Shown piece after piece: positions 861 to 14,431 of a DNA stretch of 14,431 nucleotides (position 1 is its first letter; the number at the start of each line of letters is the position of its first letter). The notes beneath the pieces were generated by a model. The model was given only the letters and a program-made list of their open reading frames with translations. It did no database searches and had not been told where the DNA came from. Origin of the DNA: Undibacterium sp. (lineage in GTDB: Bacteria > Pseudomonadota > Gammaproteobacteria > Burkholderiales > Burkholderiaceae); NCBI GenBank assembly GCA_014376575.1, contig JACMRF010000049.1, forward strand, positions 1-14,431, in the 5' to 3' direction. The position numbers and the translations under genes are program-made.

Positions 861-1688
861 ATGAACCCGCATGCAGCACACCCCACCTCCTTGGTATCGT
901 TAGCCCGCAGCCTGTGGCGCAACCAGCAGCTTATTGTGCAAATGACCAAGGGCGAAGTTGTAGGCCGCTACAAAGGCTCGGCCATGGGCCTGGCCTGGTC
1001 GTTCTTCAACCCTGTGTTCATGCTGGTGGTGTACACCTTCGTTTTCTCCGAGATATTCAAATCGCGCTGGCCAGGGGGAGATGAAAGCAAAACACAATTT
1101 GCCTTGCTCCTCTTTGTCGGCATGATCGTACTTAATTTGTTTAGCGAGGTCCTTAACCGCGCCCCTGGACTGATTCTTTCCAACATCAATTACGTCAAGA
1201 AAGTCGTATTCCCGATTGAAATACTGCCAGTGGTTGCCATGGGTGCCACCTTGTTCCATAGCCTGATCAGTCTTGGCGTGCTGCTGGCCGCATTTGTAAT
1301 CTTTAACGGCTGCCTGCACTGGACAGTGGTTTTCATTCCCTTGGTGCTGCTGCCGATCGTTATCCTTTCCACGGGTCTTGCCTGGGTGCTGGCATCCCTG
1401 GGCGTATTTTTGCGCGACGTCGGACAAACCATCGTCATCATTACCACCGTGTTGATGTTCCTTTCCCCCGTGTTTTATCCAGTTACCGCCGTGCCGGAAA
1501 GTTTCCGGCCATTCATCATGGCTCAACCGCTCACCTTCATCATCGAGCAGGCGCGTGAAGTGCTGATCTGGGGGCATATGCCAAACTGGCTTGGCTTGGG
1601 CATTTACACCTTGGCAGCAACTGCCGTGGCCTGGGCAGGCTATGCCTGGTTTCAGAAAACCAGAAAGGGGTTTGCCGATGTCCTCTAA
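861..1688 (+). CDS. wzm: Wzm: permease of the ABC-2 O-polysaccharide exporter
   Basis: A 275-residue inner-membrane protein of the ABC-2 type (Wzm/KpsM/TagG family), the usual length. It forms the channel that moves undecaprenyl-diphosphate-linked polysaccharide to the periplasm with Wzt as ATPase. The amphipathic N-terminal segment with the conserved RYKGSAMGLAW motif (36-46) is present, followed by about six hydrophobic segments near 43-63, 79-97, 121-147, 154-181, 190-207 and 243-264. The FLSPVFYP motif (200-207) is typical of the family. AAGG at 847-850 precedes the ATG by 10 bases. Its end overlaps wzt by 11 bases, indicating translational coupling. Identification is firm; the polymer is not known, and a capsule or teichoic-type exporter is less likely given the form of Wzt. 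Confidence 0.95.
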   Translation: MNPHAAHPTSLVSLARSLWRNQQLIVQMTKGEVVGRYKGSAMGLAWSFFNPVFMLVVYTFVFSEIFKSRWPGGDESKTQFALLLFVGMIVLNLFSEVLNRAPGLILSNINYVKKVVFPIEILPVVAMGATLFHSLISLGVLLAAFVIFNGCLHWTVVFIPLVLLPIVILSTGLAWVLASLGVFLRDVGQTIVIITTVLMFLSPVFYPVTAVPESFRPFIMAQPLTFIIEQAREVLIWGHMPNWLGLGIYTLAATAVAWAGYAWFQKTRKGFADVL

Positions 1689-3105
1689 CAAAAACAATCT
1701 TTCCCCTCTACCTCCGGGAGAAGGGTTAGGGGTGAGGGCCGCTACGGACAATATAGCCATTCATGTCCAAAACCTCAGCAAGTGCTACCAGATCTACGAC
1801 ACCCCGCGCGACCGGCTCAAACAGTTCGTCATGCCTCGCATGCAAGGCCTGCTAGGGCAAACACCCAAACAATACTTTCGTGAATTCTGGGCCCTGAAAG
1901 ACGTTTCGTTTGAAATTAAAAAAGGCGAAACCGTCGGCATCATCGGGCGCAATGGCAGTGGTAAATCGACGCTGTTGCAAATGATCTGCGGCACGCTCAA
2001 TCCCACCAGTGGCAGCATTCAAACCAATGGCCGCATCGCGGCGCTGCTGGAGCTTGGCTCTGGCTTTAACCCCGACTTTAGTGGGCGCGAGAACGTGTAC
2101 ATGAACGCCTCTGTGCTGGGTTTGAGTAACGACGAAATCGACGCGCGCTTCAACGACATCGTTGCCTTCGCCGACATTGGCGACTTCATCGAGCAACCGG
2201 TCAAAACCTATTCAAGCGGCATGATGGTGCGGCTGGCTTTTGCCGTCATCGCACATGTGGATGCAGACATCTTGGTGGTGGATGAAGCGCTGGCGGTAGG
2301 AGACGCGTTCTTTACCCAAAAGTGCATGCGTTTTTTGCGAAACTTTATGAAAACAGGCACCGTGTTGTTTGTGAGTCATGACACAGGTAGCATTAAGAAT
2401 TTATGTAGCTACGCTGTTTGGCTTGAAAAGGGGCAGGCAATACAGGAAGGCTTGCCAAAGTACGTCTGTGAACTTTACCTTGAAGCGTTTTACGAAGCAC
2501 AGCAAGGTGCAAGCAGCACAACCAAACTTAGAGCATTCAAGACGCCCGACGATTCACTTTCAATTAAGGATCAACGGCTGGAGTTCATTAACAGCAGCAA
2601 TTTGCGTAATGATTTGCAAATATTCAAGTTCGACCCAGACGCAGCATCTTTTGGCAAAGGCGGCGCGAAAATTCACGATGTTCATCTGCTGGATGAAGAT
2701 GATCATCTGCTGACCTGGATTGTCGGTGGTGAAAAAGTAATGCTGAGGGTAATGGTCCATGCGACTGAATATCTCGACGCTCCTATCGTCGGTTTTTATG
2801 TCAAAGATCATTTGGGACAAACTTTATTTGGAGACAACACATTCCTATCCTACAAGGAGAAGTTTATTCATTGCCAAGCCGGATGTGAACTCCAAGCCGA
2901 CTTTGTTTTTTATATGCCGTTGCTGCCCTCTGGCGAATACAGCATCACGATTGCCGTCGCCAACGGTACCCAAGAAATACACGAACAGCATCACTGGATA
3001 CATGATGCTGTATTGTTTAAATCAGAATCGAGCAGTGTTGCATCCGGTCTGATTGGCATTCCAATGTTAGAGGTAAATCTTCAAACCTTAGAAGCAATGA
3101 GATGA
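1678..3105 (+). CDS. wzt: Wzt: ATPase of the O-polysaccharide exporter, with C-terminal substrate-recognition domain
   Basis: Start chosen at ATG 1678 (475 residues), inside the end of wzm and preceded by AGAAAGGGG at good spacing; an upstream in-frame ATG at 1591 lies deep in wzm. The nucleotide-binding domain shows Walker A GRNGSGKST (90-98), the family segment LLELGSGFNPDFSGREN (123-139), signature YSSGM (178-182), Walker B DILVVDEA (197-204) and switch His in SHD (233-235). Residues about 325-470 are beta-rich and match the position and size of the Wzt C-terminal beta-sandwich, which in E. coli O9a binds the modified chain end. Residues about 8-22 (LSPLPPGEGLGVRAA) are encoded by a dispersed repeat and are extra to the domain. 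GC falls after the switch His, suggesting exchange of the C-terminal domain. It overlaps the next gene by ATGA. Confidence 0.95.
   Translation: MSSNKNNLSPLPPGEGLGVRAATDNIAIHVQNLSKCYQIYDTPRDRLKQFVMPRMQGLLGQTPKQYFREFWALKDVSFEIKKGETVGIIGRNGSGKSTLLQMICGTLNPTSGSIQTNGRIAALLELGSGFNPDFSGRENVYMNASVLGLSNDEIDARFNDIVAFADIGDFIEQPVKTYSSGMMVRLAFAVIAHVDADILVVDEALAVGDAFFTQKCMRFLRNFMKTGTVLFVSHDTGSIKNLCSYAVWLEKGQAIQEGLPKYVCELYLEAFYEAQQGASSTTKLRAFKTPDDSLSIKDQRLEFINSSNLRNDLQIFKFDPDAASFGKGGAKIHDVHLLDEDDHLLTWIVGGEKVMLRVMVHATEYLDAPIVGFYVKDHLGQTLFGDNTFLSYKEKFIHCQAGCELQADFVFYMPLLPSGEYSITIAVANGTQEIHEQHHWIHDAVLFKSESSSVASGLIGIPMLEVNLQTLEAMR
1703..1738. repeat. Dispersed palindromic repeat inside the 5' end of wzt
   Basis: The stretch contains CCCCTCTACCTCCGGGAG followed by AAGGGTTAGGGGTGAGGG, with an inner palindrome CTCC-G-GGAG (1712-1720) and imperfect pairing outside it. 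I recognise this form as a repeat common between genes in many proteobacteria; translated it gives peptides such as PLPPGEG on one strand and TPNPSPGGRGE on the other, both present here. Here it lies in frame within a coding sequence. Recognition is from memory; no second copy is in the window. Confidence 0.7.
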
Positions 3106-5444
3106 TAAAAAATAATTTAATTAAAGCTGCGTCGTTTACTCCAAGTAGCCTCCATGCTCCGAATGCATGGGTCGGGCATATGCCATTTTCATGCTGGATA
3201 ATTCAAGAGATAGCACCAAAAATATTCGTTGAACTTGGTACACATACGGGGAATTCCTACTTCTCATTTTGCCAAGCAGTAGTCGAAGCAAACCTTTCGA
3301 CAAAATGTTATGCAGTTGATACATGGCAGGGTGACGAACATGCCGGTCAATATAATGACGATATATTCACTGAAGTTAATGCAAATAATCACGAAAAATA
3401 TGCCGGATTTTCTCGACTGTTGCGGATGACTTTTGATGATGCCGCGAGCTATTTTGAAGACGAATCCGTAGAACTATTGCACATTGACGGGTTACACACC
3501 TACGAAGCGGTTCGTCATGATTTTGAAACTTGGCTGCCAAAATTGGCACCGGGTGCTGTCGTTATGTTTCACGATACTAATGTCCACGAACGAAATTTTG
3601 GAGTTTGGAAACTCTGGGAAGAGCTGCAAGTACGTTATCCGAGTAATCTAGAGTTTTTACATTCACACGGGCTTGGTGTTTTGAAACTAAACAATGCAAC
3701 GGATGAAAAGAAGCTTGAATGGCTTCAGCCCAACGTACAAGAAAAGAAAATATTGATAGATTACTTTGCTGCGCTGGGTTCGCGGCAATTGGATCGCTTT
3801 GAGTTGAGCGAATTAAAGCTGCATGCTGCTAACGCTGTAGCCGAACGTGAGTCAATGCTCAAAGATAAAGATGTCGCGTGGACAGTACGCTTGAATCAGT
3901 GCTCACAAGACTACCAATTAGAGATTGCCCGTATTGCTGCTGAACGTGATTTAATGCTAAGGGATAAAGATTTAGCGTGGAGAGAACGTCTGGACCAGTG
4001 CTCACAAGACTACCAACTGGAGATTGCCCGTATCTCTGCTGAACGTGATTTAATGTTGATCGAAAAGCATGGATGTATCTATGATTTATCAGACAATCCG
4101 GCCACCAAGGTAAGCGTTGTAACTGTCAATTTCAATGGCAAGAAGTTTCTCAAAGAATTGCTTGATAGCCTTTCAAGGCAAACTTTACAACCTGAAGAAA
4201 TTATTGTTGTAGATAATTGCTCTAGTGATGGGTCAGTCGAATATCTAAAAGAATATTTTCCATACGTAAAAATTGTTCAAGGTGAACGAAATCTTGGCTT
4301 TGCGGGTGGAAATAATATTGGCGTTTTGTCTGCCAAATATCCGCTTATCGCTTTGATTAATAATGATACTGTGGTCGAATCGACTTGGCTTTCTCATTTA
4401 GTTGGAACATGGATTAATCGCACAGTCAATGGTGAAAAAATTGGAGCAGTATCTCCAAAAATAAGATTTTTCAATAAATTTCTGTCATTTAAATTTAGCT
4501 CTGAGCTGTTCACGCCGGGTGGCACTGATGAACGCTCTTTAGGCGTAGCATTTGATTTTTCGAAGACGGGGGTTGTGGGTGTTGCTTATGTAAAACCAAT
4601 AGCCGTCTTAGGCTTCCATAATGAAGAGCAGTGGCCGGAGGAAAGAAACGTGCGCTGGACATCCGGGCCTGCCGTCCTGATGCTTCCGATAGAAGAGATT
4701 ATTTCAGGTTCTGTTTCGATACTCCGCGTTGTAGTGACAACTGGTGGGAAGCCCAGTGGTACGGAACTGCGAGTAGAGTGTGAAGGCCTCGATCTAGGCT
4801 CGTACCATGTCACTGATGTGTTTACCGAGCTTAAGATTGAAATTCCGACAAGCCTGCTGGATTCCGCAAATTGGGTAATCAATAACGCGGGCAGTCGACT
4901 CGACAAATACGGCAACGCCGCAGATATCGGCATCAATCAGCCAGATCATGGGCAATTTGATGCTTTGTCAGACCTTGATGCCTTCTGTGGGTGCAGCGTT
5001 CTGATTCCTCGCAATCTCTTCCTCAACTTGGGCGGGTTTGACGAGAGATTTTTCATGTACTACGAGGATGTCGATCTTTCATGGCGTATGCGTAGAAAGG
5101 GGCTACTCATTGTCTTTGAGCCGCGCTCAGTTGTTCGCCACATTCATGCAGGAAGTAGCGGTGAGTGGTCACCGAGTTTTCGCTACCACGTGACTCGAAA
5201 CTATCGATTAAATGGTTTCAAAAATGCACGGGTCCCACAGATGCTCGTTTTAACAATGCGGCTCTTGCTTGCATTGGGGCGTTCTTTGCGCGTCGGCGGT
5301 CTTGGTATGTGGCGAAAGCGATCAACCAAAAAGTTACAAACTATGTCTGCGGTGGAGATTGAGTTCAGGGCTCTTGCAGATGCTTTTGTGTTGGCGCCTG
5401 GGATATTGACCCGGCGGATGCTAGCGCTTTGGAAGAAAAGGTAA
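3102..5444 (+). CDS. Methyltransferase / coiled-coil repeat / GT2 glycosyltransferase fusion
   Basis: A 780-residue cytosolic three-part protein. Residues 1-200 are a SAM-dependent class I methyltransferase of the Methyltransf_24 type, with motif I VELGTHTGNS (43-52), D73 at the second strand and HIDGLHTYEAVRHDF (127-141) before GAVVMFHDT. Residues about 230-322 are charged, helical and repeat every 33 residues (246-278, 279-311, partial 312-322), suggesting a coiled coil. Residues 336-780 are a family 2 GT-A domain with VSVVTVNFNG (337-346), VVDNCSSDGS (369-378), NND (420-422) as the DxD equivalent, and GGFDERFFMYYEDVDLSWRMRR (644-665). A beta-rich module at about 467-615 is inserted within the GT domain and is richer in GC than its flanks. 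The start overlaps the wzt stop (ATGA), indicating coupled expression. The order suggests methyl capping plus sugar transfer at the chain end; acceptor and sugar are unknown. Confidence 0.88.
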   Translation: MIKNNLIKAASFTPSSLHAPNAWVGHMPFSCWIIQEIAPKIFVELGTHTGNSYFSFCQAVVEANLSTKCYAVDTWQGDEHAGQYNDDIFTEVNANNHEKYAGFSRLLRMTFDDAASYFEDESVELLHIDGLHTYEAVRHDFETWLPKLAPGAVVMFHDTNVHERNFGVWKLWEELQVRYPSNLEFLHSHGLGVLKLNNATDEKKLEWLQPNVQEKKILIDYFAALGSRQLDRFELSELKLHAANAVAERESMLKDKDVAWTVRLNQCSQDYQLEIARIAAERDLMLRDKDLAWRERLDQCSQDYQLEIARISAERDLMLIEKHGCIYDLSDNPATKVSVVTVNFNGKKFLKELLDSLSRQTLQPEEIIVVDNCSSDGSVEYLKEYFPYVKIVQGERNLGFAGGNNIGVLSAKYPLIALINNDTVVESTWLSHLVGTWINRTVNGEKIGAVSPKIRFFNKFLSFKFSSELFTPGGTDERSLGVAFDFSKTGVVGVAYVKPIAVLGFHNEEQWPEERNVRWTSGPAVLMLPIEEIISGSVSILRVVVTTGGKPSGTELRVECEGLDLGSYHVTDVFTELKIEIPTSLLDSANWVINNAGSRLDKYGNAADIGINQPDHGQFDALSDLDAFCGCSVLIPRNLFLNLGGFDERFFMYYEDVDLSWRMRRKGLLIVFEPRSVVRHIHAGSSGEWSPSFRYHVTRNYRLNGFKNARVPQMLVLTMRLLLALGRSLRVGGLGMWRKRSTKKLQTMSAVEIEFRALADAFVLAPGILTRRMLALWKKR
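3837..4067 (+). repeat. 99-bp in-frame tandem repeat (2.3 copies) coding for a helical 33-residue unit
   Basis: Copies at 3837-3935 and 3936-4034, with a partial copy at 4035-4067. The block around GCTCACAAGACTACCAA recurs exactly 99 bases apart (3901 and 4000). Each unit reads roughly AERDLMLRDKD, LAWRERLDQCS, QDYQLEIARI. Period 33 equals three 11-residue blocks, a coiled-coil-friendly spacing. Few substitutions separate copies 1 and 2, so duplication appears fairly recent and copy number could change without a frameshift. Confidence 0.9.
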
Positions 5445-5449
5445 AAATA

Positions 5450-7000
5450 ATGAAAATCGGCATTTACAACAGATACTGGAATACATGCGGAGGGGGAGAA
5501 AACTACACCGGGTCTGTGGCAGAAGTCTTGTCGGAGGATCATGAAGTAGAACTCATTTCTATTGAACCCGTTGATTGGGCTCGCATAGAGTCACGTCTGC
5601 GCCTCGATTTATCGCGATGCTCAACTAAACAATGGCCGAACGAACCGTGTTCCAGTCTATCCCCTTTGTCGGCTCATTACGATCTCTTCATCAATAGCAC
5701 CTACTCATCATCAATAATGCCGCACTCGCCCCAGTCTGCGTTGATATGCTATTTCCCCCACAGGATTGATAGCCTCGCAATAATTCGTTCACGAGTGCTT
5801 CATCGAATCAAGGAGTTTCTGGAACGAAGTAAGGGTGGTGTTTTAAAATTCAATTGCACGCAAGGGGTGGTTATTACGCCCGTCGTTGGAGTTTTCCAAG
5901 TAGAGCCAGATGGGCGATCATGGCTGGGTACAAATGCCGTCTTGACGGTGGCGGGTCTGTCATCTCACTTACTTCGGATTCCGTTGTGGCCTACTGCGCA
6001 CAACGGAATTAAAAGCGTCAAGGTGAGTGGCAGAGAATTGCCATGGCGAATCGACGGCACAAGCTTGTGCATCGAATGCAAGTCGACACCGGCTGAGGTA
6101 ATCACACTCTCCATTGTGAGCGGGCCCATGGTACCGTTAGATTCCGGGATTTCAACCGATTCTCGACAACTTGGCGCCTGTATTGATACGCGAAGAATTT
6201 CATGGGTTGATAACCAAATGGAATCTTTTCGTCAGAGTAAAAAAAATAATCCACTGGCATCGCTATCTAAATACGACAGGATTATTTCAATTTCGAAGTT
6301 CACATCGGAATGGATTGGTAGACGGTGGAATCTGCCATCAATCGAGTTGCAACCGCCGATTGATACGAATGTGTTTAGTGCAGACAGATCTACCTCAAAA
6401 GAGAAAATAATTCTCTCGGTGGGACGTTTCTTTGCTGCTGGGCACAATAAGAAACACCATGAAATTGCATCAGCCTTTATAAGGATGCGTCGAGAGGGAT
6501 ATATTTCAGGAGAATGGCGTCTGGTATTGGTAGGCGCCAGGCACCTTGAGCATCAGAAACATATTGAGTATTTCGATAAATTACAGGCGCTATGCGCAGG
6601 GCAACCGATCGATATCAAGCCAGACCTTCCTTTTACGGAACTTCTTACTTACTATCGTCGTGCATCGATTTACTGGCATGCAGCGGGGTGGGGCGAGCAA
6701 GTCGAACAATATCCTGAACGCTTCGAGCACTTTGGAATGACGACTTGCGAAGCCATGGCTTGTGGTTGCGTGCCAGTTGTGTTTGATGCGGCGGGCCAGA
6801 AGGAAATCGTGAATTCAACAGAGATCGGGTTTCGATTCTCTAGCTACGAGATGCTTGCACAGCAAATGAAGTTCTTGACCAATGCCGATCCAAAAGTTTT
6901 ATCCGAAATCGGTATAAAGGCCCAAGTATCAATCACAAGATTCTCTAGCTCATCTTTCAAGCAAAAAGTAAGGGAAACATTTCAGGGTCTCGCATATTAA
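5450..7000 (+). CDS. GT4-type (GT-B) glycosyltransferase with an inserted beta-rich module
   Basis: Start chosen at ATG 5450 (516 residues), with AAAAGG at 5436-5441 in front; a TTG seven codons earlier is less likely. The N-terminal Rossmann half begins MKIGIYNRYWNTCGGGENY with a glycine-rich donor loop. The C-terminal half has ILSVGRFF (321-328) and the GT4 E-x7-E pair E426/E434 in EHFGMTTCEAMACGCVPVV, which binds the nucleotide-sugar. Residues about 140-250 are not typical of GT4: they are beta-rich, with GVFQVEPDGRSW (147-158) and PLDSGISTDSRQLG (229-242), and resemble accessory modules of other polysaccharide glycosyltransferases. The gene follows the fusion gene after 5 bases. Expected to be a cytosolic transferase acting on lipid-linked glycan; sugar unknown. 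Confidence 0.88.
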   Translation: MKIGIYNRYWNTCGGGENYTGSVAEVLSEDHEVELISIEPVDWARIESRLRLDLSRCSTKQWPNEPCSSLSPLSAHYDLFINSTYSSSIMPHSPQSALICYFPHRIDSLAIIRSRVLHRIKEFLERSKGGVLKFNCTQGVVITPVVGVFQVEPDGRSWLGTNAVLTVAGLSSHLLRIPLWPTAHNGIKSVKVSGRELPWRIDGTSLCIECKSTPAEVITLSIVSGPMVPLDSGISTDSRQLGACIDTRRISWVDNQMESFRQSKKNNPLASLSKYDRIISISKFTSEWIGRRWNLPSIELQPPIDTNVFSADRSTSKEKIILSVGRFFAAGHNKKHHEIASAFIRMRREGYISGEWRLVLVGARHLEHQKHIEYFDKLQALCAGQPIDIKPDLPFTELLTYYRRASIYWHAAGWGEQVEQYPERFEHFGMTTCEAMACGCVPVVFDAAGQKEIVNSTEIGFRFSSYEMLAQQMKFLTNADPKVLSEIGIKAQVSITRFSSSSFKQKVRETFQGLAY

Positions 7001-7121: not shown

Positions 7122-7382
7122 GCAGGATATACACGTCAAATAAAACCATGGACGACCGAGGAAGATGAGCGCAAAGCTGCGGCCAAATTGATACTGGGCC
7201 GATATTATCCAGTCGGTACATTTGAATTCATCCACAACGAGTTGGCTGGCATCAACCGACATATTTCAAACATAAATAATGATTTCTTGGCAATTATCCA
7301 GCAACAAGTTCAGACTAACAATGCGGCACTTTATCGTAGTTTACATCGTTGCGATTTTGTTTTCTATTGCTCTACTCTATAG
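7122..7382 (+). pseudogene. Possible remnant of a lost coding sequence (no proper start)
   Basis: An open frame between TGA at 7119 and TAG at 7380 reads like ordinary protein (for example PWTTEEDERKAAAKLILGR, then FEFIHNELAGINRHISNINN). It has no ATG or GTG before the likely protein part, only a TTG at 7188 without a Shine-Dalgarno, and it runs into the start of the next gene in another frame. The 120 bases before it are AT-rich and full of stops. It may be the 3' end of a gene cut by recombination. I do not recognise the family, and chance cannot be excluded. Confidence 0.3.
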
Positions 7383-9774
7383 TTCTGCAAACGATTCACC
7401 GCTGTTGGTACTGCATCGCTGGGGAAGCGGCGAATTATTCCGTTTATTTGGCATATTCTTGTTTCTTTATTTTTTGCAGTATTTATGTAAAATTTTTAAA
7501 GCGACGATTGGTTTTCCGATATTAATTATCATCTTGGCCGTACTGATTCAATTTAATATTGCATCGGTGACCTCGGTAGCTCTGCTTGCATTCACGGCAG
7601 CCGTCATTGGCAGACGGGTAACTTTTGGGTCCCAGTGGTTCGCAAAATCAGATATTGCAATGCATCTAGCAGTAGGCTACTCAATTTTGATAGGAATATT
7701 ACAGGTAACGGCCCATTTTCCCATCAACACTCAGGGTTTATTCACTCTCGCTTCCTTTGCTTTACTTATCCTACTCCACCGAGAAACGACGGGTTTATCG
7801 GCTGATATATTTGAGTGGCTTCGCAAACCCTTTGAGGCCAACATTACCGCCTTCGTGCTACCTGTTGGCGTGGCGCTGAGCATGTTGGTATATGTTGCAA
7901 TGCCTGAGACACATTCAGATGCATTGATCTTGAATCTCGGTATGGCCCACCAGATGCAGGTCAGTGGAATGTGGTCCTTTGCTACTGAGCGATATGCATG
8001 GGCGGATTGGCCGAAAGGGGCCGCATGGTTGCAGGCAGCCCACTATCTACTCGGAGCGGAGGCTGGAGCCAGGTTGTTCAACTGGTTCACTTTGATTGTG
8101 ACATCTCTGCTGGTGTACAGAGAGTCTGTGCGACTAGCGTTTAGCACCTCAAGCACGTCGGTGTCCATAGCGCTCTTTCTCTCGACTCCAGTAGCCTTTT
8201 GGTGCGCTTTTGTGTTGTTTGACGACGCAGTATTTGGGTTATTCGTAACAGCGGCGATCATCGCAGCTGTAAATTCCTCTGCGATCTTTACCCCACGTGG
8301 AGTATTTGTAACTCTTCTGCTTTGCTCAGCAGCGATGGCAACCAAAATCACTGGTTTAGTCATCATGCCAGTAATAGCTACAGTTTATGTTTTGCGCTTT
8401 TTACTAAATAGAGCCGCGATCTGGAGACGCTTAACTGGGCGGAATTTTATACGATACATTTGGACTTTGATGCCCATTTTGGCAATCGGCGCTATCCCTT
8501 ACTTGGTCTCTTACGTCAAGACCGGAAACCCAGTTCTCCCCCTCTATAACGACATCTTCAAGTCTGAAAACTTCCCTGTAGAGCGTTTCCAGGATTTGCG
8601 TTGGAATGCGCCGCTTGGCTGGGATGCTGTGTTCAAGATGGCCGCTAACACTTCGAAATTTATGGAAGGTGGAAACTGGACTTTCGGTGTTCAACACGCC
8701 TTGTTTTTGATTCCAGTGGCAGTTGAGCTATTCCTGCGCCGTAAAAATATCGCGGTTCTTCAATATGGGTTGGCTATCGTTGTTTGTTTTATTTTAATTT
8801 TTTTTCAAGTGCGCTATGTGCGTTATCTTTATCCTATATTCCCAGTATATACGATATTGCTGGCTAGCTTCCTTCATAGAGTACGCACTGATGGCCTTGT
8901 TAGATCTATTATTGTTATTACTTCAATTTTTGCAATTATTATAAATTTAATAAATGTTAAGTCACTTAACATGTACTATGGCTTTGATTTAAAGACATTG
9001 TCGCCAGTAGATGCAAGAAAATTCATAGACTATTTTGAAAAATCATTAAATGAAACGATCAATTTAGAATACGGTGCCGCAGCTAGAGTTCTTTATCTCC
9101 ATCGACCTTATAGTGCTGGTTTAGATGGAGTGGCGTTTATCTATCATTGGTCTTCACCTTTAATTCGCGGGGCTTTTGATAACATAAAAAATGAAGCTGA
9201 AGCAATTCAGGCCATAAGAAGATTTGGTATTACTCACATTATTATTGACGCTGAAATTGTGAAATCTGTGTCGACGCCGTTCACTCAATCAATTGGCACA
9301 TTTGCCCGAATGCAGAGACAGCAGGGAACTGCTCAGTTATGGAAAGTAGACACAACATTTGTAATTTCAAATGAAACTGTAAAACTTAATAATAAAAATG
9401 TTAAAGACCTATTGCTGATTGGTTGGCGTGAACCTGAATCCTGGGGTGCATGGGCATATGGAGAGTCAGCACGAATAACTGCGCATCTTGTGAATCGTGC
9501 TATTGAAAGTCCTGTTCATATCAGAGCGCTTGCTATGCCCTACGCTCCAAAAAACAGAACGGATGACATCAACGTAGAAATTAGTGTAAACGGTAAAGTT
9601 ATTGAAGAAATAGCTTTGCATCCACAGCAGGAACAGAAAGAACTCAGTTTTAACGTGCCAGCATCCTTGCTGAGAAATTCTGATGTTCTTAATATTGATT
9701 TTATTTTTTCGAAAGCCTTTGATTCATCGCAGTTGCAACTCGGCTTTTCTGAGATTAGCTATCAATACAAATAG
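7279..9774 (+). CDS. Large GT-C-like membrane glycosyltransferase with C-terminal beta-rich domain
   Basis: An 831-residue inner-membrane protein with about a dozen hydrophobic segments between residues 15 and 560 and a soluble C-terminal part of about 270 residues. Layout and the acidic residues in the first large loop (PETHSDALILNL, 209-220) resemble GT-C enzymes that use polyprenyl-phosphate sugars, such as the GT39/ArnT-like group; no exact family is recognised. The C-terminal 710-831 region is beta-rich and opens with GWREPESWGAWAYGESA (715-731), a module form also seen in the two preceding glycosyltransferases. ATG 7321 (residue 15, MRHFIVVYIV) is an alternative start just before the first membrane segment; neither start has a good Shine-Dalgarno. 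The likely donor is the lipid-linked sugar made by the DPM1-like protein downstream. Confidence 0.75.
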   Translation: MISWQLSSNKFRLTMRHFIVVYIVAILFSIALLYSSANDSPLLVLHRWGSGELFRLFGIFLFLYFLQYLCKIFKATIGFPILIIILAVLIQFNIASVTSVALLAFTAAVIGRRVTFGSQWFAKSDIAMHLAVGYSILIGILQVTAHFPINTQGLFTLASFALLILLHRETTGLSADIFEWLRKPFEANITAFVLPVGVALSMLVYVAMPETHSDALILNLGMAHQMQVSGMWSFATERYAWADWPKGAAWLQAAHYLLGAEAGARLFNWFTLIVTSLLVYRESVRLAFSTSSTSVSIALFLSTPVAFWCAFVLFDDAVFGLFVTAAIIAAVNSSAIFTPRGVFVTLLLCSAAMATKITGLVIMPVIATVYVLRFLLNRAAIWRRLTGRNFIRYIWTLMPILAIGAIPYLVSYVKTGNPVLPLYNDIFKSENFPVERFQDLRWNAPLGWDAVFKMAANTSKFMEGGNWTFGVQHALFLIPVAVELFLRRKNIAVLQYGLAIVVCFILIFFQVRYVRYLYPIFPVYTILLASFLHRVRTDGLVRSIIVITSIFAIIINLINVKSLNMYYGFDLKTLSPVDARKFIDYFEKSLNETINLEYGAAARVLYLHRPYSAGLDGVAFIYHWSSPLIRGAFDNIKNEAEAIQAIRRFGITHIIIDAEIVKSVSTPFTQSIGTFARMQRQQGTAQLWKVDTTFVISNETVKLNNKNVKDLLLIGWREPESWGAWAYGESARITAHLVNRAIESPVHIRALAMPYAPKNRTDDINVEISVNGKVIEEIALHPQQEQKELSFNVPASLLRNSDVLNIDFIFSKAFDSSQLQLGFSEISYQYK

Positions 9775-9942
9775 TAAACTAATTACTGGTTTTGATGTGA
9801 ATTTTCGAAAACTTTTCTTCTAAAGAGGTTGTACATTGTGTTGATTTTCAGGAGACTTACAAGAATCTGTTTCAAATGAGTAATTGTGTTCACCAAGGAT
9901 TTCAGTGCTCAATAAAAGTTGGATGTTTTTTAGAGAAATCGT

Positions 9943-10968
9943 ATGACATATTCGTATATTAAAGACAATCGGAAAATTGCTGTTGTTATTCCGAGCTATC
10001 GGGTTGTCAAGCATATCTTGGGCGTAATCTCTGAGATTGGCCCCGAGGTATGGCGTATCTATGTGGTTGACGACAAGTGTCCTGATGGATCAGGTAACTA
10101 CGTTGAAGAAAACTGCATGGATCAGCGCGTTATTGTGCTGCGTCACGAAGCTAACCTAGGTGTTGGGGGCGCCGTAATGACCGGCTACCGTGCTGCAATT
10201 TTTGATGGGGCAAAAATCATCGTCAAAGTTGATGGTGACGGGCAGATGGACCCAAGCCTTATTTCCAGCTTCGTTGAACCCATCTTGGCAGGAGAGGCGG
10301 ACTACACCAAGGGAAACCGCTTTTTCGATCTTGAAGAAATTCGTGCTATGCCAGGGATGCGCTTATTTGGCAATGCCGTGCTGTCATTTATGACTAAATT
10401 TTCATCTGGATATTGGGATCTGTTTGATCCTACCAATGGATACACGGCGATCCATGCCGACATTGCGTGCCATTTACCATTTAAAAAAATAAGCCAACGT
10501 TATTTTTTCGAAACCGATATGTTATTTCGACTAAATATATTGCGCGCAGTAGTGGTTGATGTTCCCATGGATGCCAAGTACAGCGACGAAGTGAGCAACT
10601 TGCGCATTTCGAGAATCATGGGTGAGTTTCTCTTAAAACATAGTCGAAATTTCTTGAAGAGAATTTTTTATAACTATTATCTTCGCGATCTGTCTTTGGC
10701 ATCCATAGAGCTGCCAGTTGGCTTGGTGTTGCTTCTTACTGGTACAGGTTTTGGTTTGTACCATTGGTTTGAATCTGCTCATGTCGGTGTTGCAACACCC
10801 GCTGGTACGGTCATGTTGGCAGCATTGCCTATATTGATGGGGACGCAGTTGGTGTTGGCTTTTCTGGGGTTCGATATTGCGAATATTCCAAGACGTGTGC
10901 GCCATTCGCGCATTCTATCTAATAATATGTCGGCTTACAAAAGTCGATATTCAAATAATTTAAGTTAG
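9943..10968 (+). CDS. Polyprenyl-phosphate glycosyltransferase (DPM1/GtrB-like GT2)
   Basis: A 341-residue GT2 protein that probably moves a sugar from a nucleotide donor to undecaprenyl phosphate at the cytosolic face. Visible motifs are AVVIPSYR (13-20), VVDDKCPDGS (41-50), NLGVGGAVMTGY (71-82), the metal-binding DGDGQMD (97-103), DPTNGYTAIH (162-171) and FETDMLFRL (189-197). Two C-terminal membrane segments at about 256-275 and 286-308 match the GtrB-like arrangement. The 168 bases before it are AT-rich; the Shine-Dalgarno is weak (AGAGAAA), and no clear promoter was found. It lies between a GT-C-like membrane protein and a GtrA-family protein, which supports a flipped lipid-linked sugar route. 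The sugar transferred is not deducible. Confidence 0.88.
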   Translation: MTYSYIKDNRKIAVVIPSYRVVKHILGVISEIGPEVWRIYVVDDKCPDGSGNYVEENCMDQRVIVLRHEANLGVGGAVMTGYRAAIFDGAKIIVKVDGDGQMDPSLISSFVEPILAGEADYTKGNRFFDLEEIRAMPGMRLFGNAVLSFMTKFSSGYWDLFDPTNGYTAIHADIACHLPFKKISQRYFFETDMLFRLNILRAVVVDVPMDAKYSDEVSNLRISRIMGEFLLKHSRNFLKRIFYNYYLRDLSLASIELPVGLVLLLTGTGFGLYHWFESAHVGVATPAGTVMLAALPILMGTQLVLAFLGFDIANIPRRVRHSRILSNNMSAYKSRYSNNLS

Positions 10969-10970
10969 AT

Positions 10971-11540
10971 ATGGAGTATTTAAGGTTCCTGATGGGTAAG
11001 GCTCACCATTATTCTCTTTCCCTGATCATTAGATTGGAGTTTGAATCTTTAATCATGGGGTTGTTGTCAGTCGTTCCAACTGTTTTTGGCGTTTTTTTGC
11101 GAGCCACTGCTAGTAAATTTTTTTTCAAAAAAATAGATGGATTTCCTTGGCTCCAACCCCGTGTCACTATCATTCATTCCGAAAGAATAGTTGCTGGGAC
11201 ACATCTTGGCATCAATACCGGTACTTATATAAATGGTGTGGGTGGTATTGAATTTGGAAATAATGTATTAATAGGCAGCAATGTCACAATTTCCTCCGGC
11301 GAGCACCCCATTGATGGCGTGTCCCCTCCCATATTCTCACGTGTCGTAACACCCAAGAAAATCGTGATACTTGATGATGTATGGATAGGTGCAGGCGCAG
11401 TCATCATGCCGGGCATCACCTTGGCAAAAGGGTCTGTTATAGGTGCTAACGCCGTCGTCACAAAAGATACTGAAGAGTATGCTGTTTACGTTGGTGTGCC
11501 AGCTAAAAAAATAAGAAACAGGCAAGATGAACCCAAATGA
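10971..11540 (+). CDS. Left-handed beta-helix (hexapeptide) acyltransferase
   Basis: A 189-residue protein of the WbbJ/CysE-like hexapeptide acyltransferase group, probably acetylating a sugar of the polysaccharide or its precursor. Hexapeptide-type turns run from about residue 73 to 165, for example GIEFGNNVLIGSNVTIS (92-108), IVILDDVWIGAGAVIMPG (131-148) and GSVIGANAVV (154-163), ending in YVGVPAKKI. H112 in SSGEHPID is at the usual catalytic His position. The N-terminal 50 residues are hydrophobic and may touch the membrane. The ATG at 10971 follows the previous stop by 2 bases. ATG 10992 (182 residues) has a better Shine-Dalgarno (TAAGG at 10981-10985) and may be the true start. Acyl group and acceptor are unknown. 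Confidence 0.9.
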   Translation: MEYLRFLMGKAHHYSLSLIIRLEFESLIMGLLSVVPTVFGVFLRATASKFFFKKIDGFPWLQPRVTIIHSERIVAGTHLGINTGTYINGVGGIEFGNNVLIGSNVTISSGEHPIDGVSPPIFSRVVTPKKIVILDDVWIGAGAVIMPGITLAKGSVIGANAVVTKDTEEYAVYVGVPAKKIRNRQDEPK

Positions 11541-11581
11541 AAACTATTTTTACCTTCAGTTTAAATGAGTATGGGTAATTA

Positions 11582-11962
11582 ATGAGCATGAAATTCCTCA
11601 GATATGCCTTAGTTGCAGGAATCGCCTATGGTATTGACTTTGGCGGATTTATTCTTTTATTGAATATTGGATACTCACCTTTCTGGGCTAATACACTTAT
11701 TAAGGTAGTCGCCGCCATTTTTGGTTTTTTTTCCCATCGCTATTTTACGTACTTAATCAAGGTGCGTAATGGTATGGGAAAAGATGCCATTCGTTATTTC
11801 GGTTTAGCCTTGTTTTACACTCCAACTTCTTCAATATTGCTTTATGGTATTATGCTAATAATTTCAAATCCTATTTATGCAAAAGTAATATCGGATATTT
11901 CCCTTTTTATATTGATGTTTTGGATAACGTCAAGGTTTACATTTGTAAAAGCAAAAATATAA
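11582..11962 (+). CDS. GtrA-family membrane protein (putative lipid-linked sugar flippase)
   Basis: A 126-residue, four-segment membrane protein (about residues 6-28, 35-50, 71-92 and 98-116) of the GtrA/DPMS family, typical in length. The FFSHRYFTY block (49-57) after the second segment and the closing ITSRFTFVK (115-123) are family features. GtrA proteins are proposed to flip undecaprenyl-phosphate sugars made by GtrB-type enzymes, one of which lies two genes upstream. ATG 11588 is an alternative start two codons in. About 100 AT-rich bases without a clear terminator separate it from the next gene. Confidence 0.88.
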   Translation: MSMKFLRYALVAGIAYGIDFGGFILLLNIGYSPFWANTLIKVVAAIFGFFSHRYFTYLIKVRNGMGKDAIRYFGLALFYTPTSSILLYGIMLIISNPIYAKVISDISLFILMFWITSRFTFVKAKI

Positions 11963-12074
11963 TTTGGCAATCATCCGCTAAGCGCTTACCTATGAAATTT
12001 TCACGTGCAATTTTTAATAATTACGTTTCGAGCGACCGCTTCTATTTTTTATTTCCACATAATAAATGTGTTGT

Positions 12075-13358
12075 ATGAAGATTGTTATTACTGGCGTCAC
12101 AGGTTATATTGGTACACGCCTGACATCTTTGGTATTGACGCGTGGACACGACGTTGTAATAGCGTCCCGTCAACGACCTTCGTTTTCCCATAACCCTTGG
12201 CTATTTTTTGATTTGGCATCTGCCAAATCGATCGTATTACCTATCGGGACTGATGCAGTCATGCATCTTGCGGCTAACACCCAACACACACATGACTTTG
12301 ATGAGCAGCACGGAGTAACCGCCGCTAAAAAATTAATTCAATCAGCAAAGGTAGCAGGTGCCAAATTTATTTTTGTATCCAGTCAAACAGCAAGGGCGGA
12401 TGCGCCCACAGCTTATGGCCGAACCAAATGGCGCATTGAGCAAGCAGTATTGTCTTCTGGCGGCTGGGTGGTGCGACCCGGCCAGGTCTATGGAGGTCCG
12501 CTACGGGGCTTGTTTGGCACGTTGGCGCTGACCGTCAGGCAATTACTGCTGCTTCCCGCGTTCATGCCTGCCCCACGGGTTCAGCCAATTCATGTCGACG
12601 ATCTCGCTGAGGGGTTGCTGCGCATTATCGAGCGAGGTGATGTTCCGCCCACTGTGTACTGTCTAGCTGCGTCTGAGCCGGTTTCTTTCGCTCAATTTAT
12701 GGGTGAGATGGCCCAGTCGCGGCTTCGTTGCTGGCGCGGCTTTATACCACTCCCCGTTGTTTTCATCTACGCTCTGGGTAAAAAACTGCGAACTAAGCTG
12801 GGGTTGGAGCGCTTGCGTTCACTTTTTGATTTGCCTGTCATGGCCACCGCAGCTGATTTGAAGCAACTTGGGCTGATGCTGCGCCCCTTACGCTCGGGTA
12901 TGCATCCATCTGGTGATGACCGAAGACGATGTGTGCTGCAAGAAGGTACTGCCTTGCTAACGTATGTATTGAAAGTTGCACCCGGCAGCGCGTTGTTGCG
13001 CCGTTATGTTCGCGTCATTGAACGGGTGCGCGGTGGGCTAGCAGTGGGATTACCTCAATGGTTGATGAACTATCCAGTTGCTTTGTCTATGCTTGACGTG
13101 TCTGCGTGGGCTGATGCTATGGTGGGTGCCGACTATGAATGGCGGTTAGATGCTGCGACTTTGTTGGCTGAGGCCACTCCATTGGGGTCTGATCGTTTTC
13201 TCGGTGTCGGAAAAAGGTTAGAGCGTCAACGTGGCGCACTGGGCAGTTTGATCGCAATCACGAATGCAGTTGCGAACGAGGTGTTGTGGCGCCTGTTACG
13301 AGTGCTTATGCTCCCATTAGTTCGCCTGACTTTATCCCGTACAAAAGGCGTTTTATGA
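12075..13358 (+). CDS. NAD-dependent epimerase/dehydratase-like protein with C-terminal extension
   Basis: Start chosen at ATG 12075 (427 residues, MKIVITGVTGYIG), which puts the Rossmann strand at the N-terminus; ATG 12066 adds three residues. Neither has a Shine-Dalgarno. The extended SDR fold shows GVTGYIG (7-13), D46, HLAANT (64-69), SS (102-103), catalytic Y114-x3-K118 in YGRTK, RPGQVYGG (134-141) and IHVDDLAEG (172-180). Residues about 265-427 are an extra part with GMHPSGDDRRR (275-285) and a hydrophobic end, which I do not recognise as a named domain. It may modify a nucleotide- or lipid-linked sugar. It overlaps the following FAD oxidoreductase by ATGA, so the two are probably made together. 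GC rises from about 40-50% in the first 350 bases to near 58% after about 12420. Confidence 0.85.
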   Translation: MKIVITGVTGYIGTRLTSLVLTRGHDVVIASRQRPSFSHNPWLFFDLASAKSIVLPIGTDAVMHLAANTQHTHDFDEQHGVTAAKKLIQSAKVAGAKFIFVSSQTARADAPTAYGRTKWRIEQAVLSSGGWVVRPGQVYGGPLRGLFGTLALTVRQLLLLPAFMPAPRVQPIHVDDLAEGLLRIIERGDVPPTVYCLAASEPVSFAQFMGEMAQSRLRCWRGFIPLPVVFIYALGKKLRTKLGLERLRSLFDLPVMATAADLKQLGLMLRPLRSGMHPSGDDRRRCVLQEGTALLTYVLKVAPGSALLRRYVRVIERVRGGLAVGLPQWLMNYPVALSMLDVSAWADAMVGADYEWRLDAATLLAEATPLGSDRFLGVGKRLERQRGALGSLIAITNAVANEVLWRLLRVLMLPLVRLTLSRTKGVL

Positions 13359-14431
13359 CCCCGGATTTCGACGTCATCATCGTTGGCAGCGGCCCGGCAG
13401 GTGTGTCAGCGGCATTTCCGCTTGTTGAGGCTGGGCTGCGCGTCCTCATGGTCGATGGTGGTCAAAAGCCTGGTATCGAGCCACCAACGGCAGAATTTTT
13501 GTCGGCACGTGCCAATGAGCCCGAGCAATGGAAGTGGATGGTGGGCGAGAATTTTCACGCGCTGAATATGCGCGATGCGGTGTCGCCAAAATTGCGCGCA
13601 CCACCGCATGCCTATGCATTTGAAGGGTTTGAGCGTAGCAACAAAATAGTTGGCCAAGATTTCATCACGGTCGGTTCGCTGGCAACCGGTGGTCTCTCCA
13701 ATTCATGGGGTTGTGGGGTGGCGCACTTTTCGGCGAGCGAACTGGCTGCGTTCCCGTTTCCTGCCGCTGAGCTGGAGTTGTCTTATGCCACGGTTAGCCG
13801 ACGCATGGGTATCAGCGGCCGCGCTGACGACGACTTGTCTGGCTACTTTGGCCTGGATAACTTTTTACAGCCGCCTATACCCATGGATGCATTGCACACA
13901 AGCATGTCGCAGCGGTACGAGGGGCAGAGAAAGAAACTGCATGCGCAAGGTTTCAGGCTGGGCCGGTCAAGGGTTGCCGCCCTGAGTCAGGACATGGCGG
14001 GGCGACAAGCCTGTAATTTGTCGGGTAACTGCCTATGGGGGTGTCAGCGGCGGTCGCTGTATTCTGCGATAGACGATCTGCCAGCACTGCGGAAGCATGA
14101 GAATTTCCGCGAATTTTCCGGCTTTGTTGTGGATGCCTTGACGCGTAGCGATGACATTTGGCGCGTTGGTGGCACCAACATGAAAGATAACAAGCAACAA
14201 TTCATTACTGCCAGTCGAGTCATTCTGGCCGCCGGCACTCTGGCGACCACCCGGATCGTGTTAAATACATTGAATCACCAGCGTCCGGTTCCCTTGCTGT
14301 CATGCCCAACAGCTGAGTTTCTGCTGTGGCTTCCTCGACAATTGGGTGCGCAAAGAATGCCTGGCTTTGGACTTGGACAGCTGTCTTTTACGATGGCGCT
14401 TCAAAAGAACATAACGGCTTTTGGCTCTATG
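13355..14431 (+). CDS. GMC-type FAD-dependent oxidoreductase (3' end beyond the window)
   Basis: A frame open from ATG 13355 to the last base (359 codons, no stop), so the gene is cut by the window edge. The N-terminal FAD-binding motif is DVIIVGSGPAGVSAAFPL (6-23) with acidic D34 at the end of the second strand. GGLSNSWGCGV (112-122) resembles the GG-S--WGG segment of GMC oxidoreductases, and VILAAGTLATTRIVLN (289-304) is the second dinucleotide-fold motif. A cysteine group C220-x5-C226-x3-C230 precedes a conserved-looking RRSLYSA. Such proteins oxidise alcohols or sugar hydroxyls. Pairing with the epimerase-like gene through a 4-base overlap suggests both act on the same sugar; the substrate is unknown. 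Confidence 0.88.
   Translation, partial: MTPDFDVIIVGSGPAGVSAAFPLVEAGLRVLMVDGGQKPGIEPPTAEFLSARANEPEQWKWMVGENFHALNMRDAVSPKLRAPPHAYAFEGFERSNKIVGQDFITVGSLATGGLSNSWGCGVAHFSASELAAFPFPAAELELSYATVSRRMGISGRADDDLSGYFGLDNFLQPPIPMDALHTSMSQRYEGQRKKLHAQGFRLGRSRVAALSQDMAGRQACNLSGNCLWGCQRRSLYSAIDDLPALRKHENFREFSGFVVDALTRSDDIWRVGGTNMKDNKQQFITASRVILAAGTLATTRIVLNTLNHQRPVPLLSCPTAEFLLWLPRQLGAQRMPGFGLGQLSFTMALQKNITAFGSM

What the first reader, a model, noticed from the sequence alone, without database searches (positions are those of the whole stretch)
3102..5444. Methyltransferase, repeat coiled coil and glycosyltransferase fused next to Wzt: candidate one-chain terminator and ruler
Seen: SAM methyltransferase (1-200), 33-residue helical repeats (246-322) and GT2 domain (336-780) in one protein, coupled by ATGA to a wzt with a C-terminal beta-sandwich. 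Known: in E. coli O9a, WbdD caps the chain by kinase/methyltransferase action, its coiled coil sets chain length, and the Wzt C-terminal domain recognises the cap. Inferred: this fusion may combine extension, methyl capping and length setting, with repeat number acting as a length dial. No kinase domain is visible, so the chemistry would be simpler than in WbdD.
Basis: partly seen in the sequence, partly recalled or inferred. Interest (0 to 1): 0.72.

Follow-up and report, generated by a model that had tools for sequence, protein, structure and literature searches.

The report
Methyl-cap, ruler and sugar-adder fusion
This bacterial gene fuses an enzyme that probably methyl-caps a growing surface sugar chain, a repeat-built helical rod that probably sets chain length, and an enzyme that adds sugars; related genes carry different caps and different numbers of repeats, which would make the idea easy to test.

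Summary
ORF 3102-5444 encodes, in one 780-aa chain, a Methyltransf_24 methyltransferase, a long helix with two 33-aa repeats plus a partial third, and a GT2 glycosyltransferase. It overlaps wzt by ATGA; that Wzt carries a Wzt_C domain. No kinase was found.

The interpretation (one-chain terminator, ruler, extender) is partly supported. The format is not new: Klebsiella O12 WbbB and O7 ORF6 put terminator, coiled coil and glycosyltransferases on one chain, and methyl-only caps are known.

New here: in one relative the ruler, GT2, GT4, Wzm and Wzt-ATPase are kept while the head and the Wzt recognition domain are both replaced; in two others the head and recognition domain are kept while this GT2 is not. 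Across 50 wzt loci, a Trp aligned with the methyl-cap pocket of Aquifex Wzt goes with a methyltransferase next door (12 of 14 versus 14 of 36). Head and recognition domain are also physical neighbours, so linkage could explain part of this.

The 33-aa repeat varies from 0 to 5 copies among GT2 relatives with at least three kinds of head. Relatives of the head carry 0-13 copies of a 14-aa repeat instead.

Capping, length control and polymerase role remain inference. A new variant of a known kind.

The parts
3102..3716 (+). Methyltransferase head, residues 1-205 (candidate chain-capping enzyme)
3738..3857 (+). Helix leaving the head, residues 213-252
   Evidence: AF2 model of residues 1-253; same region is low-confidence in the full-length model
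3843..4061 (+). 33-aa repeat array: 248-280, 281-313 and partial copy 314-320 (candidate ruler)
   Evidence: helix 253-330 in AF2
4107..4421 (+). GT2 catalytic domain, N-terminal half (residues 336-440)
   Evidence: Pfam Glycos_transf_2 E 6.6e-22; pLDDT mostly 95-98
4422..4976 (+). Beta-rich insert within the GT2 (residues about 441-625)
   Evidence: DSSP of AF2 model; conserved with the GT2 in relatives
4977..5441 (+). GT2 C-terminal half and C-terminal helices (residues 626-780)
861..1688 (+). Wzm-like ABC-2 permease
   Evidence: Pfam ABC2_membrane E 4.3e-23
1678..3105 (+). Wzt: ATPase plus C-terminal recognition domain (Wzt_C about 2644-3057)
   Evidence: Pfam ABC_tran E 2.2e-24, Wzt_C E 4.4e-36; nearest solved C-domain by sequence is the Aquifex Wzt-CBD 8dky, E 4.6e-11
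5450..7000 (+). GT4-type glycosyltransferase kept next to the GT2 in relatives (candidate partner enzyme)
   Evidence: Pfam Glycos_transf_1 E 8.8e-17; follows the GT2 in L001, L002, L003 and L091

Best explanation
A cap-ruler-extender protein of an ABC-transporter-dependent polysaccharide (O-antigen-like) pathway. The C-terminal GT2, probably with the adjacent GT4, extends a lipid-linked chain near the membrane. The 33-aa repeats form a helical rod holding the N-terminal methyltransferase away from the GT: 118 residues from 213 to 330, about 177 A if it is one alpha-helix (arithmetic, not measured). When the chain end reaches the head it is O-methylated on the terminal sugar, elongation stops, and the Wzt C-terminal domain recognises the methylated end for export through Wzm. 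Repeat number would set the spacing and so the chain length. Shown by computation: domains, helix, repeat variation, co-replacement of head and recognition domain in a few loci. Inferred: methylation of the chain end, polymerase role, ruler function.
For: (1) Same order as proven one-chain systems O12 WbbB and O7 ORF6 (PMC11231755). (2) Exchange between loci. L091 keeps Wzm 60%, Wzt-ATPase 62%, GT2 59%, GT4 64% and a GtrB-like enzyme 73%, but has a DUF4915 head and a Wzt_C (Pfam E 1.5e-22) with no BLAST match to this one at 1e-8. L092 and L093 keep the head (64%, 58%) and Wzt_C (63%, 53%) but have no BLAST match to this GT2 or GT4 at 1e-8. (3) The nearest solved Wzt C-domain is that of Aquifex, which binds 3-O-methyl-mannose; of its four methyl-pocket residues T346, A348 and W362 are identical here and L300 is Tyr. 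(4) In 50 wzt loci (three of them L092, L093 and L002 again) the Trp at that position goes with a methyltransferase in the next gene: 12 of 14 with Trp, 14 of 36 without, Fisher p 0.004. (5) Predicted helices 213-252 and 253-330. (6) Repeat number 0-5, in exact 33-aa register in most relatives, at least 15 changes on a tree of 28 labelled rows.
Against: The wzt C-domain and the head are adjacent in the DNA (they overlap by ATGA), so one exchange could replace or keep both without any functional match. Of the 7 head loci, two (L092, L093; heads 64% and 58%) have the matching Wzt_C, three with heads at about 51-56% do not (L094, L095, L096; in L095 the Wzt ORF beside the head has almost no C-domain), and two (L089, L090) are short stretches that show no wzt. 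Aquifex H350 and H355, which contact the sugar, trap loop or next sugar, are Ala and Glu here; V380 and Y233 were not mapped. 14 of 36 Trp-less loci also have a methyltransferase next to wzt, and two Trp loci (L188, L193) do not; the test is not corrected for shared ancestry. A helical periodicity of the repeat was not significant (1887 of 20000 column shuffles reached it). P0018 has head and GT with no repeat and a short linker. 8 of 38 GT2 relatives appear without a head (some may be cut short), so the GT can probably work without a ruler. Only one GT module is present.
Confidence: 0.55

Rival explanations
1. The methyltransferase decorates an internal sugar in every repeat unit or an adaptor sugar; the helix merely tethers two enzymes acting on the same acceptor, and chain length is set elsewhere. 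Head and Wzt C-domain move together only because they are neighbours.
For: Methyltransferase-GT fusions are common among the 120 relatives listed; methyltransferases also adjoin wzt in 14 of 36 loci without the pocket Trp; heads at about 51-56% identity occur beside Wzt proteins without this Wzt_C (L094-L096); the fold is a general O-methyltransferase fold.
Against: Does not predict the Trp association, the pocket residues, nor a rod of variable copy number.
Confidence: 0.24
2. The GT2 is an adaptor or single-addition enzyme, not part of the polymerase; the protein is a terminator recruited to a separate polymerase, WbdD-like, with the GT module serving as its dock.
For: One GT2 module only; a GT2 relative occurs as a separate enzyme beside the GT4 (L001); WbdD docks onto a separate polymerase (PMC11231755, PMC5082667 passages).
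Confidence: 0.15
3. Repeat copy number is neutral slack from replication slippage and the helix is a linker with no measuring role.
For: Copy number changes often; repeats within this protein resemble each other (0.76 identity) more than those of other proteins (0.44), as fresh duplications would.
Against: The 33-residue register is kept in most relatives and residues of the repeat are shared across proteins with different heads; P0012 and P0017 have one degenerate unit of about 26 residues.
Confidence: 0.2

Closest known systems
K. pneumoniae O7 ORF6 (PMC11231755)
   Same: N-terminal methyltransferase, coiled coil, C-terminal GT2 on one chain, ABC-transporter pathway
   Different: O7 has an additional kinase domain, a CBM-like domain and two GT2 modules, and makes a methyl-phosphate cap; here no kinase was found and there is one GT2 with a beta insert
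K. pneumoniae O12 WbbB (PMC11231755 passages)
   Same: Terminator, coiled-coil ruler and polymerase in one polypeptide
   Different: WbbB terminates with Kdo using a GT; here the head is a methyltransferase and only one GT module is present
E. coli O9a WbdD (PMC5082667, PMC11231755 passages)
   Same: N-terminal methyltransferase on a rod; coil length changes chain length there; only terminated chains are exported
   Different: WbdD has a kinase and no GT; polymerase WbdA is a separate protein
E. coli O101/O162 methyltransferase (PMC13168486 passages) and O5 WbdD (PMC11231755 passage)
   Same: Methyl cap; the O101 protein has one predicted methyltransferase domain and a coiled coil
   Different: No fused GT mentioned in the passages read
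Aquifex aeolicus WzmWzt (PMC9445017 passages; 8dky, 8dku)
   Same: Nearest solved relative of this Wzt by sequence; three of four methyl-pocket residues identical
   Different: H350 and H355, which contact the cap sugar, trap loop or second sugar, differ

Membership tests
One-chain terminator-ruler-polymerase (WbbB, O7 ORF6 kind) | Candidate terminating enzyme and GT module at opposite ends of a helical rod in one chain | tested here: met
   Pfam and AF2; architecture only
One-chain terminator-ruler-polymerase (WbbB, O7 ORF6 kind) | Enzymatic polymerisation and chain termination | not testable with these tools
   needs biochemistry
One-chain terminator-ruler-polymerase (WbbB, O7 ORF6 kind) | All or most polymerase GT modules on the chain | tested here: inconclusive
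   one GT2 module found; a GT4 is encoded next door
WbdD (O9a/O3 type) | Kinase domain beside the methyltransferase | tested here: not met
   no kinase family in this protein; 206-335 is linker and helix
WbdD (O9a/O3 type) | Oligomeric coiled coil | tested here: inconclusive
   monomer helix predicted; oligomer not modelled; periodicity test not significant
WbdD (O9a/O3 type) | Coil length sets polysaccharide length | not testable with these tools
   copy number varies among relatives, chain lengths unknown
Cap-recognising Wzt | C-terminal carbohydrate-binding domain on the ATPase | tested here: met
   Wzt_C E 4.4e-36
Methyl-cap-binding Wzt of the Aquifex type | Methyl pocket L300, T346, A348, W362 | tested here: inconclusive
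   Y, T, A, W here; H350 and H355 not conserved
Methyltransf_24 / cation-dependent O-methyltransferase fold | Family profile and fold | tested here: met
Glycosyltransferase family 2 | Profile and GT-A fold | tested here: met

The most novel reading that the evidence does not exclude
These proteins are an exchangeable cap-ruler-extender cassette. Different heads (Methyltransf_24, Methyltransf_11/23, DUF4915 and a weak sulfotransferase-like domain) are swapped onto the same 33-aa-repeat rod and GT2, each with a matching Wzt recognition domain. DUF4915 would then be a new kind of chain-capping module, and tandem-repeat copy number an evolvable dial of surface polysaccharide length.
Probability: 0.38. 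Interest if true: 0.76.

Novelty: new variant of a known kind. Interest (0 to 1): 0.6.

Why it matters
In O9a the coiled coil of WbdD sets O-antigen length, as shown by insertions and truncations (PMC5082667 passage). Here nature offers a graded series: relatives that share one GT2 module but differ in repeat number (0-5) and in the kind of head. If chain length follows repeat number, the rule connecting rod length to chain length becomes testable without engineering. The paired change of head and Wzt recognition domain, if it is more than physical linkage, gives a sequence handle for predicting which cap a transporter reads, and nominates DUF4915 (no paper in the held library contains that word) as a candidate cap-forming module.

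Tried and rejected
Hendecad coiled coil: 33 = 3 x 11 suggested it, but hydrophobic power at 3.67 residues was reached by 1887 of 20000 column shuffles, so it is not claimed. An earlier comparison against 3.5 was unfair because tiling a 33-residue unit suppresses 3.5, and was dropped.

Kinase in the window: no kinase family for the 9 proteins or the partial last ORF; genes outside the window could not be checked, as no genome is held.

Repeat outside this GT family: a search with residues 244-324 alone gave 2 of 156 candidates, this protein and P0002; the tool needs exact shared words, so this says little. MT24-headed proteins that reach the list score only 12-25 on the 33-aa profile, and many carry a 14-aa repeat instead (87 of the 95 listed head relatives examined). 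The 33-aa profile was built from this GT2 family, so its high scores there are by construction.

Genomic island at the tRNA: an 18-nt piece of the tRNA-Ser has no second copy in the window.

The genome-contig scan drew mostly distant GT2s; of its 80 loci I looked closely at L001, L002, L003, L008 and, for the head, L009. No plasmid match at 1e-40. GT-module matches at E <= 1e-60: 1 of 369 genomes, the search centre itself; 1 of 398; 1 of 169, the same genome as. Head matches at E <= 1e-50: 7 of 369, 1 of 5, already among the seven.

Sulfotransferase head: P0051 and P0132 match Sulfotransfer_3 only below its cut-off (24.5 and 25.6 bits, cut-off 27), and P0007 has no Pfam match in its N-terminal part. 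So that head type is tentative. P0126 and P0127 were left without a head label.

Rows dropped in the Trp test: one search listed 69 Wzt places; 68 were fetched (one cut at a contig end in G126 was left out); 3 had no ATPase ORF in my non-overlapping set, 5 had C-terminal parts under 110 aa (one of these, L189, is the locus L095 with a Methyltransf_24 head), 9 had no same-strand gene within 400 bases (two of these, L129 and L142, have the Trp). That leaves 51; L153 was set aside for doubtful alignment, giving 50. With L153 and L091 included: 13 of 15 versus 14 of 37, p 0.0019. Requiring both Ala348 and Trp362: 10 of 12 versus 17 of 40, p 0.02. ATPase E below 1e-70 only (L153 and L091 included): 10 of 10 versus 9 of 17, p 0.012. 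Only the first 500 residues of each next gene were scanned.

Whether a variable-repeat ruler is already in print: the listings showed no paper that I recognised as describing one. I saw passages or sections of only five papers, and the main primary paper (PMC4650267) is not held, so this is not a claim of absence.
Full report
WHAT IS THERE. ORF 3102-5444 encodes 780 aa and overlaps wzt by ATGA. Pfam finds Methyltransf_24 (43-159) and a GT2 whose halves are split by a beta-rich insert. Between them lie two 33-aa repeats and part of a third; the two full copies are 82% identical as DNA. The surrounding order is a QueD-like gene, tRNA-Ser, wzm, wzt, this fusion, a GT4, a large unassigned protein, a GtrB/DPM-like GT2, a hexapeptide transferase, a GtrA-like protein, an epimerase and an FAD oxidoreductase.

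TWO MODULES WITH SEPARATE HISTORIES. Of the 119 other proteins listed, 95 share the head (69-84% identity, P0067 49%) and 25 share the GT2 with its insert (about 40-80% in its parts); P0067 is in both sets. In a tree of 38 GT2 modules this protein sits with P0002 (Methyltransf_11/23-type head), P0004 (DUF4915 head) and P0011 (no head), 96/87 support. Head labels given to 28 rows need at least 8 changes on that tree, repeat numbers at least 15; 7 of its 35 inner branches are weak. Head labels came from precomputed Pfam lists, Pfam scans and, for P0007, resemblance to P0051 in the alignment; sulfotransferase-like heads are tentative.

THE REPEAT. A profile (consensus ERDAMLADKDRAWSARVEQVAADHVAEIQRIAA) built from this family finds strong copies (score 30 or more) in 27 of 215 proteins, nearly always spaced by exactly 33. 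Counts run from 0 (P0018) to 5 (P0003, P0005, P0020). Head relatives with other GTs often carry a 14-aa repeat (LNQAVTERDGQIAS-like, at least 8 of 14 identical): 71 of 87 examined, of 95 listed, have at least one copy, up to 13; shuffled linkers gave 0 hits against 219. The window protein shows none of these, so it looks like a head from the 14-aa family joined to a rod from the 33-aa family. Its linker reads HAANAVAERESM, close to the A-x-A-E-R-D found in both repeats; that the join fell there is inference.

HEAD AND TRANSPORTER DOMAIN CHANGE TOGETHER IN SOME LOCI. L092 has a 64% head and 63% Wzt_C, L093 58% and 53%; neither has a BLAST match to this GT2, and they carry RgpF/WbsX-type domains and two other GT2 domains respectively. 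L002 (Luteimonas) has the GT2 and repeats with a Methyltransf_11-type head and a 46% Wzt_C. In the alignment window, L002, L092 and L093 share QHHW near the C-terminus; L091 does not. Against: the two domains are neighbours in the DNA, so one exchange could move both; and three further loci with more distant heads (about 51-56%: L094, L095, L096) have no match to this Wzt_C, L095 having a Wzt ORF with almost no C-domain.

POCKET TEST. The nearest solved C-domain is the Aquifex Wzt-CBD, seen with 3-O-methyl-mannose (PMC9445017 passages). Paper numbering was mapped as chain number minus one, which fits all seven residues checked. Pocket residues L300, T346, A348, W362 are Y, T, A, W here; H350 and H355 are A and E. 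Wzt ATPases were then sought in 292 genomes without regard to the C-domain (61 with a match), 68 regions fetched, and the next gene scanned with Pfam. With Trp: 12 of 14 have a methyltransferase next; without: 14 of 36; Fisher p 0.004. The counts are not independent by descent, and include L092, L093 and L002 again, so this is support, not proof. Other C-domain classes have their own methyltransferase types (FkbM-type in L140, L141, L151), which fits matching of cap and reader but weakens the Trp as a unique sign.

COMPARISON WITH THE KNOWN. From PMC11231755 (abstract, first parts of sections 11 and 13, and passages): terminators lie at the far end of a coiled coil; O12 WbbB and O7 ORF6 carry terminator and GTs in one chain; O5 caps are methyl. 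From PMC5082667 (passages): WbdD coil insertions and truncations lengthen and shorten chains. From PMC13168486 (passages): an intact O101/O162 methyltransferase, which has a coiled coil, is needed for O-methylation; lipid-linked chains of two O162 strains each bore one methyl, while other strains were methylated only in part (85.4% and 13.7%); disruption changed chain length and composition. From PMC11127046 (passages): GtrA/GtrB/GT-C type systems decorate chains after export. So mechanism and one-chain format are precedented; the swapped heads, the conserved countable repeat and the partly matched reader domains are what is added.

ODDS. On checking, I lowered the best explanation from 0.58 to 0.55 and the novel case from 0.40 to 0.38, and raised the decoration rival from 0.22 to 0.24, because of the physical linkage of head and reader domain and the three loci that break the pairing.

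VERDICT. A new variant of a known kind, with a good natural series for testing the ruler.

Noticed in passing
7279-11962: A large protein without Pfam, NCBIfam or PHROG match (7279-9774, GT-C-like by length and context only), a GtrB/DPM-like GT2 (9943-10968) and a GtrA/DPMS protein (11582-11962) resemble a three-component system for adding side-chain sugars after export; L091 keeps the GtrB-like gene at 73%.
   Followed up: partly
5450-7000: The GT4 follows the GT2 in L001, L002, L003 and L091, even where the GT2 is a separate gene (L001), suggesting a pair. It also seems to hold extra sequence before its GT match, which starts at residue 314.
   Followed up: partly
451-538: tRNA-Ser (TGA) lies about 320 bases before wzm, after a QueD-like gene; a possible island edge, but an 18-nt piece of it has no second copy in the window.
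   Followed up: partly
P0061, P0100, P0037 (residues 206-520): Head relatives carry up to 7, 8 and 13 copies, some near-identical, of a 14-aa (two-heptad) repeat between the methyltransferase and other GTs; such arrays could change copy number by slippage.
   Followed up: partly
L091:8086-10719 and P0003-P0020: DUF4915 (PF16261) occupies the head position in 14 of 38 GT2-family proteins in the tree; no paper in the held library contains the word.
   Followed up: partly
L140, L141, L151: Wzt genes whose C-domains share another pattern (LISGA at the checked positions) are followed by FkbM-type methyltransferases, hinting at further cap-reader classes.
   Followed up: no
L163, L165: The gene after wzt matches sulfotransferase families, another possible kind of chain-end modification; both lack the pocket Trp.
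   Followed up: no
12066-14431: An NAD-dependent epimerase-like protein and an FAD oxidoreductase that runs off the window end; roles in this locus unclear.
   Followed up: no
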